Source of the DNA: Jeotgalibacillus aurantiacus
Lineage (GTDB): Bacteria; Bacillota; Bacilli; Bacillales; Jeotgalibacillaceae
Direction: 5' to 3'
NCBI RefSeq assembly: GCF_020595125.1
Contig: NZ_JACNMS010000004.1
Span: 124,001 to 188,000 of the forward strand
Length of the DNA stretch: 64,000 bases
Under the pieces are notes generated by a model. It was not told the origin of the DNA and did not search any database. It worked only from the letters and a program-made list of their open reading frames with translations. How positions within the stretch are numbered: the first letter of the stretch is position 1; each line of letters opens with the position of its first letter. Shown piece after piece: positions 8,228 through 59,643 of this stretch. The translations under genes were made by a program, and so were the position numbers.

Positions 8228-8248
8228 TTTATATAATTTTTAAAAATC

Positions 8249-8363
8249 GTGCCAGGTCATTCCTTCGCTTTCCACGGCCGCGCGGTGAGCCAGCTAGTGC
8301 TTCGCACTACGCTGTCTCACCTTTCGCTCCTCTGCCGTAGGAGTCTACGGAATGACCTGGCAC
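8249..8363 (+). repeat. Dispersed hairpin repeat, copy A (long form, forward)
   Basis: Perfect 15-bp inverted arms (GTGCCAGGTCATTCC at 8249-8263 and its reverse complement at 8349-8363) flank an 85-base core. The core begins TTCGCTTTCC, ends AGGAGTCTAC, and holds an inner hairpin (GGTGAG...TAGTGC-TTC-GCACTA...CTCACC). The same core, in reverse and also 85 bases, occurs at 56021-56105, but with different arms. The element fills most of the 375-bp pyk-fxsA gap and contains no reading frame. Confidence 0.85.
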
Positions 8364-8493
8364 TTGTTATGGTGAACCATTTTAAATGATAAATTTAAGC
8401 GTTAAATGACCACCACGATGAAATAATATATTTTAAATGTCAACACTTCACAAAAGTGAGACCTTTGATCGTGTAGCATTTGGAACAGATTTT

Positions 8494-24441: not shown

Positions 24442-24470
24442 TTGCAAACGCTTTTAATATGTTATACTAT
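24442..24470 (+). promoter_or_regulatory. gapB promoter with cre-like overlap
   Basis: TTGCAA (24442-24447), 17 bases, TACTAT (24465-24470). TGCAAACGCTTTTA over the -35 fits the cre consensus at 12 of 14 positions. The -10 is covered by a CcpN-type site. Confidence 0.65.
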
Positions 24471-24501
24471 TTTTAGTTATTTTGATTATAAGTATAACAT
24501 T
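24458..24501. promoter_or_regulatory. Paired inverted CcpN operators at gapB
   Basis: TATGTTATACT (24458-24468) fits the CcpN consensus TRTGHYATAYW at all 11 positions and overlaps the -10. AGTATAACATT (24491-24501) is the same motif on the other strand with one mismatch. CcpN represses gapB during glycolytic growth in B. subtilis through two sites at this promoter (established). ccpN itself is not in the window. Confidence 0.75.
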
Positions 24502-24516
24502 ATTAGGGGGATCCTC

Positions 24517-25554
24517 ATGAAAAAAACGAACATTGCCATTAATGGATTTGGCCGCATTGGCCGAATGGTGTTTAGAAAAGCGATTATGGAGGACAATTTG
24601 AATCTTGTAGCCATCAATGCAAGCTACCCTCCGGAAACACTTGCGCACCTCATTAAATATGATTCCACTCATGGAGCGTTTGCGGCTGAAGTGTCCGCTG
24701 ACGAGGATTCATTAACTGTAAACGGAAAGAAAATTCTGCTTGTAAATGACCGTAACCCGGAGAATCTTCCGTGGGCACGTCTTCAAATTGATATTGTGAT
24801 TGAGGCTACAGGGAAATTTAATGCACGTGATAAAGCAGCTCTTCATTTAAACGCTGGCGCTAAGAAAGTTGTATTAACAGCACCTGGTAAACAGGAAGAT
24901 GTCATGATTGTGATGGGCGTTAACGAAGACGCACTTGATGTTCACCAGCACGATGTCATCTCAAATGCTTCCTGCACGACAAATTGTCTTGCTCCGGTAG
25001 CAAAAATTCTTGATGAAGAATTCGGTATTGAAAACGGTCTTATGACGACTGTGCATGCCTATACGAACGACCAGAAAAACATTGATAATCCGCATAAGGA
25101 TCTGCGCCGTGCACGTTCATGCGGACAGTCTATTATCCCGACTTCAACAGGTGCAGCGAAAGCGTTAGGAAAAGTTTTGCCGAACCTTCAGGGTAAACTG
25201 CACGGAATGGCGCTGCGCGTTCCAACACCAAACGTATCGCTCGTTGATCTTGTTGTAGATGTAAAACGGGAAGTGACAGTGGATGAAGTGAACGCAGCTT
25301 TTAAACGCGCTGCTGAAAATGAACTGAATGGGATTGTTGCATTTACAGCAGAACCGCTCGTATCGATTGATTTCAACACAAATCCAAACTCCGCGATCAT
25401 CGACGGTCTGTCCACAATGGTCATGGGGGCTACAAAAGTTAAAGTACTTGCATGGTACGATAACGAATGGGGCTACTCATGCAGAGTCGTTGACCTCGTT
25501 CAGCACCTCGCTCACCAGATGGATCAGTCACATAGAGAAGTAACGGCTTCATAA
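24517..25554 (+). CDS. gapB: Glyceraldehyde-3-phosphate dehydrogenase, gluconeogenic type
   Basis: 345 residues. NAD(P)-binding NIAINGFGRIGRMVFRKA at the start, catalytic cysteine in SNASCTTNCLAP, and NPNSAIIDGLS / WYDNEWGYSCRVVDL near the end. It is called GapB rather than GapA because of the INASYPPETLAHLIKYDSTHG-type segment after the first strand, as in B. subtilis GapB, which prefers NADP and runs toward gluconeogenesis. Position after coaE and before speD and the paired CcpN sites agree. ATG 24517 follows AGGGGG. Confidence 0.95.
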   Translation: MKKTNIAINGFGRIGRMVFRKAIMEDNLNLVAINASYPPETLAHLIKYDSTHGAFAAEVSADEDSLTVNGKKILLVNDRNPENLPWARLQIDIVIEATGKFNARDKAALHLNAGAKKVVLTAPGKQEDVMIVMGVNEDALDVHQHDVISNASCTTNCLAPVAKILDEEFGIENGLMTTVHAYTNDQKNIDNPHKDLRRARSCGQSIIPTSTGAAKALGKVLPNLQGKLHGMALRVPTPNVSLVDLVVDVKREVTVDEVNAAFKRAAENELNGIVAFTAEPLVSIDFNTNPNSAIIDGLSTMVMGATKVKVLAWYDNEWGYSCRVVDLVQHLAHQMDQSHREVTAS

Positions 25555-25558
25555 GATG

Positions 25559-25590
25559 AAAACTCCTGCCATGGCGGCAGGAGTTTTTTA
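25559..25590 (+). terminator. Terminator after gapB
   Basis: AACTCCTGCC / GGCAGGAGTT stem (25561-25570, 25576-25585), five-base loop, T-run. Confidence 0.92.
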
Positions 25591-25652: not shown

Positions 25653-25838
25653 TTATCAGCAGAACTGGCGTCTCTATCGACAGTAATCTGAGGTCTATCG
25701 ACGATTCGAAGCCTTCTATCAACATTTACATCCCTGCTAACGACAAAACCAATCCACTGCGGAGGACTATCAACAATATAAAGCGTGCGATCAACAACCA
25801 TTGTCCTCCTTACGACAGTGCGGATCGTGCTATCGACA
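25653..25838. repeat. 21-bp phased array of degenerate CTATCRACA 9-mers (array 1)
   Basis: Nine 9-mers related to CTATC(A/G)ACA begin at 25653, 25674, 25695, 25716, 25737, 25767, 25788, 25809 and 25830. Steps are 21,21,21,21,30,21,21,21 bases. Spacers of 12 bases (one of 21) share little. All units have the same orientation. Reading frames cross the array on both strands because every step is a multiple of three (plus-strand heptads such as SIDSNLR, SIDDSKP, SINIYIP), but none has a ribosome binding site. The array fills the gap between the gapB terminator and the speD promoter. No function is known to me. Confidence 0.85.
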
Positions 25839-25977
25839 TTTACAGATTTCATTTTAAAGAAATCTCGCAAGTCCGGGTGATATCATCAGCTCCTTTCTCG
25901 CGCGTGGAAGCGTTCTAACATTGTCATTGACAATCCTAAAAATAACCTTTTACATATCTCTATTTCAAAACAAGTTA

Positions 25978-34915: not shown

Positions 34916-35185
34916 ATGAATCAGCTATTTTTGGGATACTTACTGTTAATCAATATTGCGGGATTTGCTACGATGGGGATCGATAAAAAGAAGGCTAAGA
35001 AAAATGAGTACCGTATTCCAGAAAAAACATTGTGGCTTGTTGCATTCGCAGGAGGAGCGCTCGGCAGCTGGCTTGGCATGCAGTTTTTTCACCACAAGAC
35101 AAGACACCGTAACTTCTCCATGGGACTTCCATTTCTCGTAATCGTGTATGGAGGGCTTCTGATTTATACCTATTACTGGCAGTAA
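34916..35185 (+). CDS. ysdA: DUF1294 family membrane protein (YsdA-like)
   Basis: 89 residues with three or four membrane spans: LFLGYLLLINIAGFATMGID, then KKKAKKNEYRIPEKTLWLVAFAGGALGSWLGMQFF and LPFLVIVYGGLLIYTYYW. The RIPE-x4-L...GG-x2-G / HKTRH pattern is that of DUF1294. Function unknown; gene position after rplT matches B. subtilis ysdA. ATG 34916 follows AGAAAGGA. A strong terminator ends it; array 2 follows. Confidence 0.88.
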   Translation: MNQLFLGYLLLINIAGFATMGIDKKKAKKNEYRIPEKTLWLVAFAGGALGSWLGMQFFHHKTRHRNFSMGLPFLVIVYGGLLIYTYYWQ

Positions 35186-35235
35186 AAAAGATAGGGATTT
35201 GACTTTGAGTTGCGTCAAATTCCTATCTTTTTTTG
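35184..35235. terminator. Terminator after ysdA
   Basis: AAAAAGATAGG (35185-35195) / CCTATCTTTTT (35222-35232) with inner TTTGAC / GTCAAA pairing, ending in Ts; usable on both strands. Confidence 0.9.
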
Positions 35236-35346: not shown

Positions 35347-35511
35347 CTATCGACAGATTCTTTGGTGATATGAACAGATCGTTGAGTGCTATCAACAGAA
35401 ATAACGTATCTACCGACAGGATTTTAAGTGCTCTCAACAATTCCAGTCCTAGAAGGCTTTCTATCTACAAATATGTGTTGTCTAGTGACAGAAATCATTC
35501 TGCTATCAACA
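35347..35511. repeat. 21-bp phased array of degenerate CTATCRACA 9-mers (array 2)
   Basis: Eight 9-mers begin at 35347, 35368, 35389, 35410, 35431, 35461, 35482 and 35503: CTATCGACA, ATATGAACA, CTATCAACA, CTACCGACA, CTCTCAACA, CTATCTACA, CTAGTGACA, CTATCAACA. Steps are 21,21,21,21,30,21,21, the same plan as array 1, including the 30-bp step after the fifth unit. Spacers are unrelated to those of array 1 apart from a CCA(A/G)TCC element in the long spacer. It lies between the converging ysdA and ysdB genes. The plus frame is open but lacks a ribosome binding site, and the minus frame is broken by a stop. Confidence 0.85.
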
Positions 35512-35553
35512 CCTGCCTGCAAATGATCTACTGCAAAAAATTACTCAATGGAT

Positions 35554-35949
35554 TCATTCCATCCGATCCTTTTCAAGCAGCTCCCTGATCGGACTCTTCC
35601 AATCAATCCTGGCGTGGGGATAATTGCTGCGAACCTCCGTTTCAAGAAAGCGGAAATCCTCAATCGTAAACCCCTGCAGTCTGGAAGGGTCATGCGGCCA
35701 GATGAAAATCGAAACAACATCAAATGAACGCTCCGTTTCACCCAGATATTTTTCACCTTGAAACATCAGACCTTTATAAGTAATAAAGAAATTTTTACGT
35801 GGATTATTCGAATCATCATGAAAATAATAATCTGCTTTTTCGTGGGCAAGCTCCAATTTCCTCTTCGGATCAAACAAATATTTAAATCCCTTATAAATAA
35901 GATAAAGAACAGCTGCAAGTATAATCAGCCTCAGCAAAAGAACAACCAT
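35554..35949 (-). CDS. ysdB: YsdB, sigma-W pathway protein
   Basis: 131 residues: one N-terminal membrane span (VVLLLRLIILAAVLYLIYKGFKYLF) and a cytoplasmic domain (RKLELAHEKADYYFHDD; IFIWPHDPSRLQGF). Length and sequence type match YsdB, whose loss lowers sigma-W activity in B. subtilis; its exact role is unclear. Read from the minus strand; a sigma-W-type promoter lies directly upstream (35979-36007), consistent with autocontrol in that regulon. Divergent to the dUTPase gene. Confidence 0.88.
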   Translation of the reverse strand: MVVLLLRLIILAAVLYLIYKGFKYLFDPKRKLELAHEKADYYFHDDSNNPRKNFFITYKGLMFQGEKYLGETERSFDVVSIFIWPHDPSRLQGFTIEDFRFLETEVRSNYPHARIDWKSPIRELLEKDRME

Positions 35950-55774: not shown

Positions 55775-55785
55775 ATTAGAAAAGC

Positions 55786-55895
55786 GAAGGCGACTCGTCC
55801 AGTCCCGACAAGCATAAGGCGAAGATGAAAAAAGGGCTGACCTTCGCCCACGTTCAGCTTTGACTTATGACCTCGAGGGGCTAGTCGCCGCAGCT
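55786..55895. repeat. Second dispersed-type repeat (nested imperfect hairpin)
   Basis: Nested complementary blocks in order: GGCGACT (55789-55795) with AGTCGCC (55883-55889), CATAAG (55813-55818) with CTTATG (55864-55869), and GGCGAAG (55818-55824) with CTTCGCC (55842-55848). One imperfect hairpin of about 110 bases results, unlike the other repeat family in sequence and arm layout. No other copy is seen in this window. Confidence 0.6.
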
Positions 55896-56004
55896 AGACA
55901 CAAAAAAAGCGTAGTATGTTTTCAGTAGACTTTATCATTGCAATGAACTAATTTTTTCGGTTTTTCATTTTTTGAAAAATCAATAGATAGAGTCGAATCA
56001 CGAA

Positions 56005-56121
56005 GGGCAGGTGAGCATCCGCAGACTCCTGTGGCGGAGGAGCGACAGGTGAGACAGCGTAGTGCGTAGCACTAGCTGGCTCACCGCGCGGCCACGGAAA
56101 GCGGAGGATGCTCACCTGCCC
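56005..56121 (-). repeat. Dispersed hairpin repeat, copy E (long form, reverse)
   Basis: Perfect 16-bp arms (GGGCAGGTGAGCATCC at 56005-56020; complement at 56106-56121) around an 85-base core that is the near-exact reverse complement of the core of copy A, with only scattered differences. The trxA-uvrC gap (556 bp) thus holds a terminator, two repeats and a candidate promoter, but no gene. Confidence 0.88.
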
Positions 56122-58410: not shown

Positions 58411-59643
58411 GTGGGTTTAGTTGTTCAGAAGTTTGGCGGAACGTCAGTAGGATCAGTTGAGAAGATCCATCATGTAGCCAATCGCGTCATTCAGGAAAAA
58501 GAGCGAGGGAATGATGTAATTGTCGTTGTGTCTGCAATGGGGAAAACAACAGATGAGCTTGTCAGACTGGCAGGGGAAATGACCTCAAGACCTGAGAAGC
58601 GTGAAATGGATATGCTGCTGACAACGGGAGAGCAGATGTCGATTTCACTCTTATCCATGGCGCTTCAAAACAGAGGATATAAAAGTACGTCCTTAACGGG
58701 CTGGCAGGCAGGAATCCGTACAGAGGCTGTTTTCAGCAACGCAAGAATTACAGATGTTAAGACGGAGCGTGTAAAGGGACTGCTGAATGAAGGACGTGTT
58801 CTTGTTGTCGCAGGATTTCAAGGAATGGATGAGAACGGTGAAATTACAACACTGGGCCGTGGTGGATCCGATACGACCGCTGTAGCACTCGCAGCAGCAC
58901 TGCGCGCAGACCGGTGTGATATTTATACAGATGTTGATGGCGTATATACAACAGATCCGAGATATGTGAAGGGTGCAAGAAAATTAACAGCCGTATCTTA
59001 TGATGAAATGCTTGAGATGGCAAATCTTGGTGCGGGCGTTCTGCATCCAAGGGCGGTTGAGTTTGCTAAAAATCATCAGATTACATTAACAGTCCGTTCG
59101 AGTATGGAAGAAGTGGAAGGAACGATTATTGAGGAGGATGCACCAATGGAAGGAAATTTGGTTGTACGAGGAGTAGCATTTGATCAGGGGATTGTCAGAA
59201 TGACCGTTGTCGGTTTGCAGGATGAATTAATAGGGATGTCATCTGTTTTCACCGTATTGGCTGATAATCACATTGATGTGGATATTATTATTCAGAGTAA
59301 AACAGATACCGGGAAGGTTAATCTTTCATTCTCTATTAAAGAAGCTGCATTGCATGAAGCGCTTGAAGTACTTGAGCAGCACAGAGAGCAGATCGGATTT
59401 GATCAGATTGAGCACGAATCAGGGTTAGCGAAGGTTTCCATCGTTGGGTCCGGTATGGTATCAAATCCGGGTGTGGCAGCGAAAATGTTCAGCGTACTTG
59501 CATCAAACGGAATTCAAATGAAAATGGTCAGCACGTCTGAGATTAAGGTTTCTGCATTGGTGGATATGGAGAAAATGCAGGATGCGGCACAAATTCTGCA
59601 TGACAGCTTCAGCCTGAGCGAGCTTGCAGCCGGGCAGGCATAA
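58411..59643 (+). CDS. lysC: Lysine-sensitive aspartokinase (alpha, with internal beta start)
   Basis: 410 residues; phosphorylates aspartate, first step to lysine, diaminopimelate, methionine and threonine. N-terminal kinase domain (VQKFGGTSVGSVEKI; LTTGEQMSISLLSMAL; GRGGSDTTAVALAAAL; YTDVDGVYTTDPR) and two C-terminal ACT domains that bind the feedback inhibitor. GTG 58411 follows AGAAGGAAA. In-frame codon 246 is an ATG with its own ribosome binding site, as in B. subtilis LysC, where it makes the separate beta subunit. Control is by the lysine riboswitch upstream. Confidence 0.96.
   Translation: MGLVVQKFGGTSVGSVEKIHHVANRVIQEKERGNDVIVVVSAMGKTTDELVRLAGEMTSRPEKREMDMLLTTGEQMSISLLSMALQNRGYKSTSLTGWQAGIRTEAVFSNARITDVKTERVKGLLNEGRVLVVAGFQGMDENGEITTLGRGGSDTTAVALAAALRADRCDIYTDVDGVYTTDPRYVKGARKLTAVSYDEMLEMANLGAGVLHPRAVEFAKNHQITLTVRSSMEEVEGTIIEEDAPMEGNLVVRGVAFDQGIVRMTVVGLQDELIGMSSVFTVLADNHIDVDIIIQSKTDTGKVNLSFSIKEAALHEALEVLEQHREQIGFDQIEHESGLAKVSIVGSGMVSNPGVAAKMFSVLASNGIQMKMVSTSEIKVSALVDMEKMQDAAQILHDSFSLSELAAGQA
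59131..59148 (+). promoter_or_regulatory. Internal ribosome binding site and start for aspartokinase beta subunit
   Basis: GAGGAGG (59131-59137) lies eight bases before ATG 59146, in frame at codon 246 of lysC. The product (59146-59643, 165 residues, M-E-G-N-L-V-V) would be the two ACT domains only. The same codon number is the known beta start in B. subtilis. Confidence 0.85.

What the first reader, a model, noticed from the sequence alone, without database searches (positions are those of the whole stretch)
35347..35511. Second array with the same plan: five units, a 30-bp step, then more units
Ten kilobases away, eight units at 35347, 35368, 35389, 35410, 35431, 35461, 35482, 35503 give steps 21,21,21,21,30,21,21. 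Array 1 gives 21,21,21,21,30,21,21,21. The single 30-bp step falls after unit five in both, although spacer sequences differ. Two independent regions sharing motif, phase and the place of the long step point to a constrained element with a defined architecture, not chance or simple tandem duplication. The long spacers share a CCA(A/G)TCC element followed by GGA/AGG, which may mark a centre.
Basis: partly seen in the sequence, partly recalled or inferred. Interest (0 to 1): 0.88.

Follow-up and report, generated by a model that had tools for sequence, protein, structure and literature searches.

The report
Dispersed 5+4 phased DNA-repeat arrays
The chromosome carries about fifty copies of a small DNA element made of eight or nine evenly spaced copies of one ten-base word, usually with one wider gap after the fifth, and none was found near the replication terminus; it looks like a landing array for an unknown DNA-binding protein and matches no system I know.

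Summary
Both window arrays (25653 and 35347) are five 21-bp-spaced CTATCRACA units, a 30-bp step, then three or four more. A profile of the layout gives 78 matches in this 3.5-Mb genome, 55 of them near full length; 72 merge to 50 loci. Counted without anchoring, 42 of 53 arrays with one long step have exactly five units before it. Spacers differ between loci (identity 0.30, shuffled 0.27) while words agree (0.70). In nine orthologous arrays of a sister species, words diverge 5.7% and spacers 17.0%. No RNA fold, covariation or clear coding was found. Arrays favour convergent gene junctions and are absent from a 648-kb stretch holding dif, where an unrelated intergenic repeat has its expected density (18 of 99). 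One of 11 sampled congeners shares the family; other Bacillales have 21-bp arrays without the wide step. Best reading: a DNA-level binding array for an unidentified protein that marks the chromosome outside the terminus, working somewhat like Noc/SlmA site sets but built differently. Protein and function are not shown; a selfish repeat is the main rival.

The parts
35347..35440 (+). array 2, units 1-5 (10-bp words at 35347, 35368, 35389, 35410, 35431; step 21)
   Evidence: R1 match C4:159347-159514, E 3.6e-29
35441..35460 (+). array 2, long spacer of the 30-bp step (TTCCAGTCCTAGAAGGCTTT)
   Evidence: weak family consensus TTTCAGCCT...CAG
35461..35512 (+). array 2, units 6-8 (35461, 35482, 35503)
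25653..25746 (+). array 1, units 1-5
   Evidence: R1 match C4:149654-149823, E 6.7e-24
25747..25766 (+). array 1, long spacer of the 30-bp step
25767..25839 (+). array 1, units 6-9
35190..35235 (+). hairpin followed by a T run, downstream of the DUF1294 gene and upstream of array 2
   Evidence: read from the sequence; no terminator program was run
25561..25589 (+). hairpin followed by a T run between the gap gene and array 1
   Evidence: read from the sequence; no terminator program was run
34916..35185 (+). left neighbour of array 2, DUF1294 protein (context only)
   Evidence: Pfam PF06961, E 7.6e-26
35554..35949 (-). right, convergent neighbour of array 2 (context only)
   Evidence: ORF; no Pfam match
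24442..25554 (+). left neighbour of array 1, glyceraldehyde-3-phosphate dehydrogenase (context only)
   Evidence: Pfam PF00044/PF02800
26115..26528 (+). right neighbour of array 1, S-adenosylmethionine decarboxylase (context only)
   Evidence: Pfam PF02675

Best explanation
The element is a double-stranded DNA binding array. A sequence-specific protein, not identified, recognises the non-palindromic word CTATCRACA; copies 21 bp apart sit two helical turns apart, so the molecules line up head to tail on one face of the DNA, and the one 30-32-bp step (about three turns) keeps that face while separating a five-site block from a three- or four-site block. Single copies come and go, but the set as a whole stays out of the terminus region and lies mainly between convergent genes, so the likeliest role is to mark the rest of the chromosome for segregation, nucleoid organisation or timing of division, as Noc and SlmA sites do. 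Shown: layout, constraint on the words, no sign of RNA structure, distribution. Inferred: that a protein binds, its same-face arrangement, and the chromosomal role.
For: Layout: 42 of 53 unanchored arrays with one long step have five units before it; 50 loci, 42 of them with a near full-length match (counted by hand). Word versus spacer divergence in 9 orthologous arrays 37/648 against 112/657, p 6e-11. Spacer identity between loci 0.296 against 0.266 for unit-shuffled elements, word 0.70. No covariation over 33 elements; fold of array 2 z -0.12. No orientation preference relative to replication, 23 along and 27 against, counted by hand (binomial); in tandem gene contexts 5 co, 11 anti. Convergent junctions hold 22 of 39 classed blocks against 6 of 55 gaps in the window. 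Terminus: perfect match to a dif-like pattern at C2:342113, GC-skew switch between the 300- and 400-kb samples of C2; no array in C2:1-647573 (expected 9.2), permutation p 2.5e-4 for a gap of that size; C2 has 2 of 50 loci, both incomplete arrays. Unrelated intergenic repeat in the same stretch 18 of 99, expected 18.3. Noc-type sites with at most 1 mismatch: 1 of 21 on C2, p 0.013. In G009, 0 of about 30 loci on the 531-kb dif contig, p 0.007.
Against: No protein is known or nominated; no gene family recurs beside arrays among the 40 largest clusters looked at. Ten of 11 sampled congeners show only 0-2 weak matches, so any role is not essential to the genus. Seven of seven loci chosen because G009 showed no match are array-free in G009, which a selfish element would also show. 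Noc-type sites with 2 mismatches do not avoid C2 (10 of 22 there, 4 in the array-free stretch; the reversed control gives 7 sites, so many are chance). In Planococcus ruber one array lies about 233 kb from dif. Terminus avoidance rests on one draft genome plus one related draft that shares loci; twelve small contigs (C8-C19, about 0.19 Mb) are unplaced. The R1 search scored 150 of 451 first-look candidates, so weak arrays may be missed. 17 of 33 elements are open in one non-unit frame, about as expected where most codons are fixed and stop-free.
Confidence: 0.45

Rival explanations
1. A selfish or neutral dispersed intergenic repeat (REP- or MITE-like). The array would be the cis part needed by some transposase or replication protein; the fixed layout is inherited from one ancestral copy.
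For: Patchy presence within the genus, array-free orthologous sites, tandem duplication or triplication at several loci with spacer identity mostly 0.6-0.98, slight excess of between-locus spacer similarity over shuffles (99th percentile 0.485 against 0.41), placement where insertion does little harm.
Against: Words are under constraint in resident copies; no target duplication was visible by eye at 7 polymorphic sites, and two of them keep a single word in G009, as after loss; almost no flank conservation (at most 0.3 bit per column); terminus avoidance, while an ordinary intergenic repeat is at or above expectation there.
Confidence: 0.3
2. A transcription-level device between convergent genes: a protein roadblock, terminator booster or a 3'-UTR RNA element.
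For: 22 of 39 blocks are at convergent junctions; both window arrays follow hairpin/T-run sequences.
Against: No RNA structure or covariation, no Rfam match near gathering score around array 2, no significant orientation to tandem flanking genes, no reason for terminus avoidance.
Confidence: 0.13
3. DnaA-titration clusters: the word differs from the DnaA box (TTATCCACA, recalled) mainly at position 6.
For: Similarity of the word; distribution away from the terminus.
Against: By layout position alone, word position 6 is G 126, A 125, C 8, T 5 of 264 units; C is the base the DnaA box prefers (recalled). Regular one-strand 21-bp phasing is not typical of DnaA-box clusters (recalled).
Confidence: 0.04

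Closest known systems
Noc / NBS nucleoid-occlusion sites (Bacillus subtilis) and SlmA / SBS (E. coli)
   Same: Tens of dispersed chromosomal sites under-represented around the terminus (PMC4726725, passages read); the stronger Noc-type sites in this genome are also scarce on C2 (1 of 21).
   Different: NBS and SBS are palindromic sites; here a site is an 8-9-unit one-strand array with a 5+3(4) layout, and the word is unrelated to NBS.
Plasmid iterons and centromere arrays (for example ParR/parC, TubR/tubC; recalled)
   Same: Direct repeats about two helical turns apart read by a head-to-tail protein.
   Different: Some 50 chromosomal loci, no recurrent gene beside them, spacers unrelated between copies.
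21-bp YTATCRACA arrays of other Bacillales (Allobacillus, Alkalibacillus aidingensis, Planococcus ruber)
   Same: Same word, same 21-bp spacing.
   Different: No 30-bp step seen; unit numbers from about 4 to more than 20; spacers often alike within an array, as in minisatellites.
REP/BIME, bcr and other dispersed intergenic repeats (recalled)
   Same: Dispersed, intergenic, near gene 3' ends.
   Different: No palindrome, no conserved spacer or flank, constraint limited to the words, terminus avoidance.

Membership tests
Noc binding sites (NBS) | 14-bp palindrome ATTTCCCGGGAAAT (letters recalled) | tested here: not met
   Unit is non-palindromic CTATCRACA; NBS-like sites occur separately, 21 with at most 1 mismatch
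Noc/SlmA-type nucleoid-occlusion sites, by function | under-representation around the terminus | tested here: met
   0 of 50 loci in C2:1-647573 containing dif; 18 of 99 control repeats there. Against: a P. ruber array about 233 kb from dif
Noc/SlmA-type nucleoid-occlusion sites, by function | bound protein that blocks Z-ring assembly | not testable with these tools
   needs ChIP and microscopy
DnaA-box cluster | C at position 6 of TTATNCACA (recalled) | tested here: not met
   C in 8 of 264 units placed by layout
Plasmid iteron / centromere array | direct repeats in helical phase | tested here: met
   steps 21 and 30-32
Plasmid iteron / centromere array | cognate Rep or partition gene beside the array | tested here: not met
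   no recurrent neighbour family among 683 flanking ORFs, 40 largest clusters viewed; a gene beside one array only would be missed
Minisatellite / VNTR | near-identical head-to-tail units including spacers, variable unit number | tested here: not met
   spacers differ from unit to unit; mostly eight or nine units
MITE or similar transposon | terminal inverted repeats and target-site duplication | tested here: inconclusive
   almost no flank conservation over 33 elements; no duplication seen by eye at 7 sites array-free in G009, but most of those sites also differ around the array
Structured non-coding RNA | conserved or covarying secondary structure | tested here: not met
   33 elements; array 2 only
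Protein-coding repeat | open reading frame through the array | tested here: not met
   3 of 33 elements open in the unit frame; 17 of 33 in one other frame with stop rate 0.015, about that expected from its fixed codons (expectation by hand)

The most novel reading that the evidence does not exclude
A previously undescribed chromosome-marking system of Bacillales in which an unknown protein assembles on 8-9-site helically phased arrays with a 5+3(4) layout, kept out of the terminus region to couple segregation or division to replication, alongside Noc-type sites, and apparently gained within one small clade of Jeotgalibacillus.
Probability: 0.3. Interest if true: 0.88.

Novelty: new variant of a known kind. 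Interest (0 to 1): 0.7.

Why it matters
The terminus-avoiding site sets I know of are single short palindromes. A set whose sites are multi-unit phased arrays of one layout, found in two sampled species of a genus and not beyond weak matches in ten, would be a fresh natural experiment in how chromosome-marking systems arise, and gives a bait (one 180-bp DNA) and a gene-content contrast (two genomes with, ten without) to find the protein directly.

Tried and rejected
Coding repeat: rejected, arrays hold stops in the unit frame in 30 of 33 elements. RNA element: rejected. CRISPR: rejected, the repeated word is 10 bp and tolerant and spacers are 11 bp. Neighbour-gene clue: all-against-all BLAST of 683 flanking ORFs; the 40 largest clusters were the arrays' own readings, orthologous loci and what look like common families. 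Phage or plasmid source: one viral contig with an exact minisatellite at its edge, judged unrelated; no plasmid match to array 2. DNA curvature from phased A-runs was dropped because Allobacillus units lack the A-run. Replication-direction marking (KOPS-like): no orientation bias, 23 against 27. A first orthologue comparison was partly misaligned and included two pairs that may not be orthologous; both are superseded, which kept 9 of 14 candidate rows (3 with a different fitted long step and 2 below 75% identity dropped; the cut-off favours conserved arrays). A fitted long step of 29 bp (L220) and two of 33 bp in G009 are scoring artefacts: the first reads 30 then 20 (L086), the other two have no second block. 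NBS-array proximity (8 of 20 within 6 kb, rotation p 0.05) is post hoc and not used. The word matrix came from units chosen by likeness to the consensus, so position 6 was recounted by layout. Literature: nine searches; none of the listed papers appears from title and abstract to describe the arrays; three searches found nothing, and one search lists 15 of 122 papers holding one of four word variants, the rest unseen. Only passages of PMC4726725 were read; otherwise search listings. dnaA was not located: a short motif search in five stretches near 0.87-0.94 Mb of C1 found none, so the origin is placed by GC skew between the 850- and 920-kb samples only, and finer samples are noisy.

Full report
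Check of the observation. They are beyond chance: no shuffled window gave five matching offsets out of eight (0 of 300), and genome-wide the 21-spaced pair of words occurs 176 times against 6 for the reversed control, the 30-spaced pair 21 times against 1.

Genome-wide family. Without anchoring, 59 clusters appear: 53 have exactly one long step, and five units precede it in 42 of these; after it come three units in most and four in the next largest group. The exceptions (four, three, two, six or seven units before) include missed or chance units; six clusters lack a single long step. A scan anchored on the layout found 51 elements; with long steps limited to 28-33 bp, the step is 30 in 43, 31 in 7 and 32 in 1. 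Unit nine scores above threshold in 18 of 51. Scores fall sharply outside the array on both sides in nearly all. A sequence-only profile of 17 elements searched over the whole genome gave 78 matches with E up to 0.1, with 150 of 451 first-look candidates scored; 55 of the 78 run from model position 20 or lower to 164 or higher (counted by hand). Leaving out six weak matches of at most 24.6 bits, 72 merge to 50 loci, 42 of which hold a near full-length match. Several loci hold two or three tandem copies of the whole element.

What is conserved. The word is C T A T/a C R A C A, with ACA nearly fixed, followed by a weak G/A/T and AAA (units chosen by likeness to the consensus). Counted by layout position only, position 6 is G 126, A 125, C 8, T 5 of 264. 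Spacers carry little information except a faint consensus in the long spacer. Between loci, spacer identity is 0.296 (0.266 after shuffling units within elements) and word identity 0.70; a few between-locus pairs reach 0.5, so some common descent is likely. In nine orthologous arrays of the sister species G009, words differ at 37 of 648 positions and spacers at 112 of 657 (p 6e-11). In two orthologous pairs the fitted long step differs, 30 against 31 and 30 against 32. The words thus look maintained by selection while spacers drift.

DNA, not RNA or protein. No covariation among 33 elements; array 2 folds no better than shuffles (z -0.12); no Rfam family near its gathering score around array 2; stops in the unit frame in 30 of 33 elements, though 17 of 33 are open in another frame whose fixed codons carry no stop. 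Orientation is indifferent to replication (23 along, 27 against, counted by hand) and not significantly tied to tandem flanking genes (5 along, 11 against). A 21-bp step is two helical turns and a 30-32-bp step about three, so sites would sit on one face; this is inference from geometry.

Where they are. Of 41 array blocks in the fetched stretches 39 had both neighbours called by a simple codon-usage gene finder: 22 lie between convergent genes, 16 between tandem genes and 1 between divergent genes; the window's own 55 gaps are 6, 43 and 6. GC skew of 40 samples shows the terminus on contig C2 and the origin between 850 and 920 kb of C1; a perfect match to a dif-like pattern lies at C2:342113. 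C2 is 27% of the genome but has 2 of 50 loci (p 3e-5), both incomplete arrays more than 300 kb from dif; C2:1-647573 has none, p 2.5e-4 for a gap of that size. As a control I used an unrelated abundant intergenic repeat: 39 of 99 copies are on C2 and 18 of 99 in the array-free stretch, where 18.3 are expected (counted by hand; tests; one search used a miscount of 40). Noc-type sites with at most one mismatch number 21, one on C2 at 793 kb (p 0.013); of 22 sites with two mismatches, where chance matches are common (reversed control 7 sites at up to two mismatches), 10 are on C2, 4 of them in the array-free stretch. In G009 the dif contig (531 kb) has none of about 30 array loci merged by hand (34 of 35 matches were listed; p 0.007); these loci partly overlap those of G000 by descent. 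In Allobacillus the dif contigs carry no listed array (G397) or one weak match at the far end (G398), not significant, and that listing was truncated; in Planococcus ruber one array lies about 233 kb from dif, which does not fit a wide exclusion zone there.

Who has them. The other ten sampled congeners give 0-2 weak matches each; the array 2 locus is syntenic and array-free in the two that I read by eye (G001, G006). Seven G000 loci, chosen because G009 showed no match there, have high-identity flanks and no array in G009, without visible target duplication; at two of the seven (array 1 and L013) G009 keeps a single word, perhaps a remnant. The G009 copy of array 2 keeps only its first five units, the rest being replaced by another dispersed repeat. 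Copies thus turn over. In the order, 29 of 397 genomes have a pair with at most one mismatch, mostly single matches; 21-bp arrays in which I saw no 30-bp step occur in Allobacillus, Alkalibacillus aidingensis, Planococcus ruber and possibly a few others. Hits outside Bacillales look like heptad coding repeats, which I did not test.

Reading. The best-supported model is a binding array for an unidentified head-to-tail DNA-binding protein. Turnover of single copies with upkeep of words, layout and terminus avoidance resembles site sets such as NBS and SBS, which are under-represented around the terminus (PMC4726725, passages). It is not a member of those families: the word and form differ and no protein is known. 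The main rival is a selfish dispersed repeat; constraint on resident copies and terminus avoidance speak against it, patchiness and array-free sites for it. The biological role remains inference.

Noticed in passing
window 55776-56107 and 8245-8371; 99 places in G000: An abundant unrelated intergenic repeat (about GACTCCTGCGGCAGAGAAGCGACAGGTGAGACAG...CTCACCGCGCGGCC, up to about 250 bp); 39 of 99 copies lie on the terminus contig C2 and only 12 of 99 on the origin contig C1, the reverse of the arrays.
   Followed up: partly
G000 C1:36752-37430, 58665-59207, 65683-66284, 114816-115467, 567747-568416; C3:139117-139760 and 450009-450445; C6:9754-10452: Whole 5+3(4) elements occur as tandem pairs or triplets with periods of about 216-268 bp, dense near one end of contig C1.
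   Followed up: partly
L116 (G104, another Bacillales family): A run of more than 50 tandem 21-bp units (CATCGACAGAGTAGGCCGG type), perhaps slipped amplification of the same word.
   Followed up: no
Allobacillus loci L174, L190, L214 and others: Units often alternate TTATCAACA / TTATCGACA, giving a 42-bp higher-order period within long arrays.
   Followed up: no
G000 Noc-type sites, for example C1:113272 and 116814 flanking arrays at C1:114816-115467: 8 of 20 Noc-type sites lie within 6 kb of an array (rotation mean 4.4, p 0.05, post hoc).
   Followed up: partly
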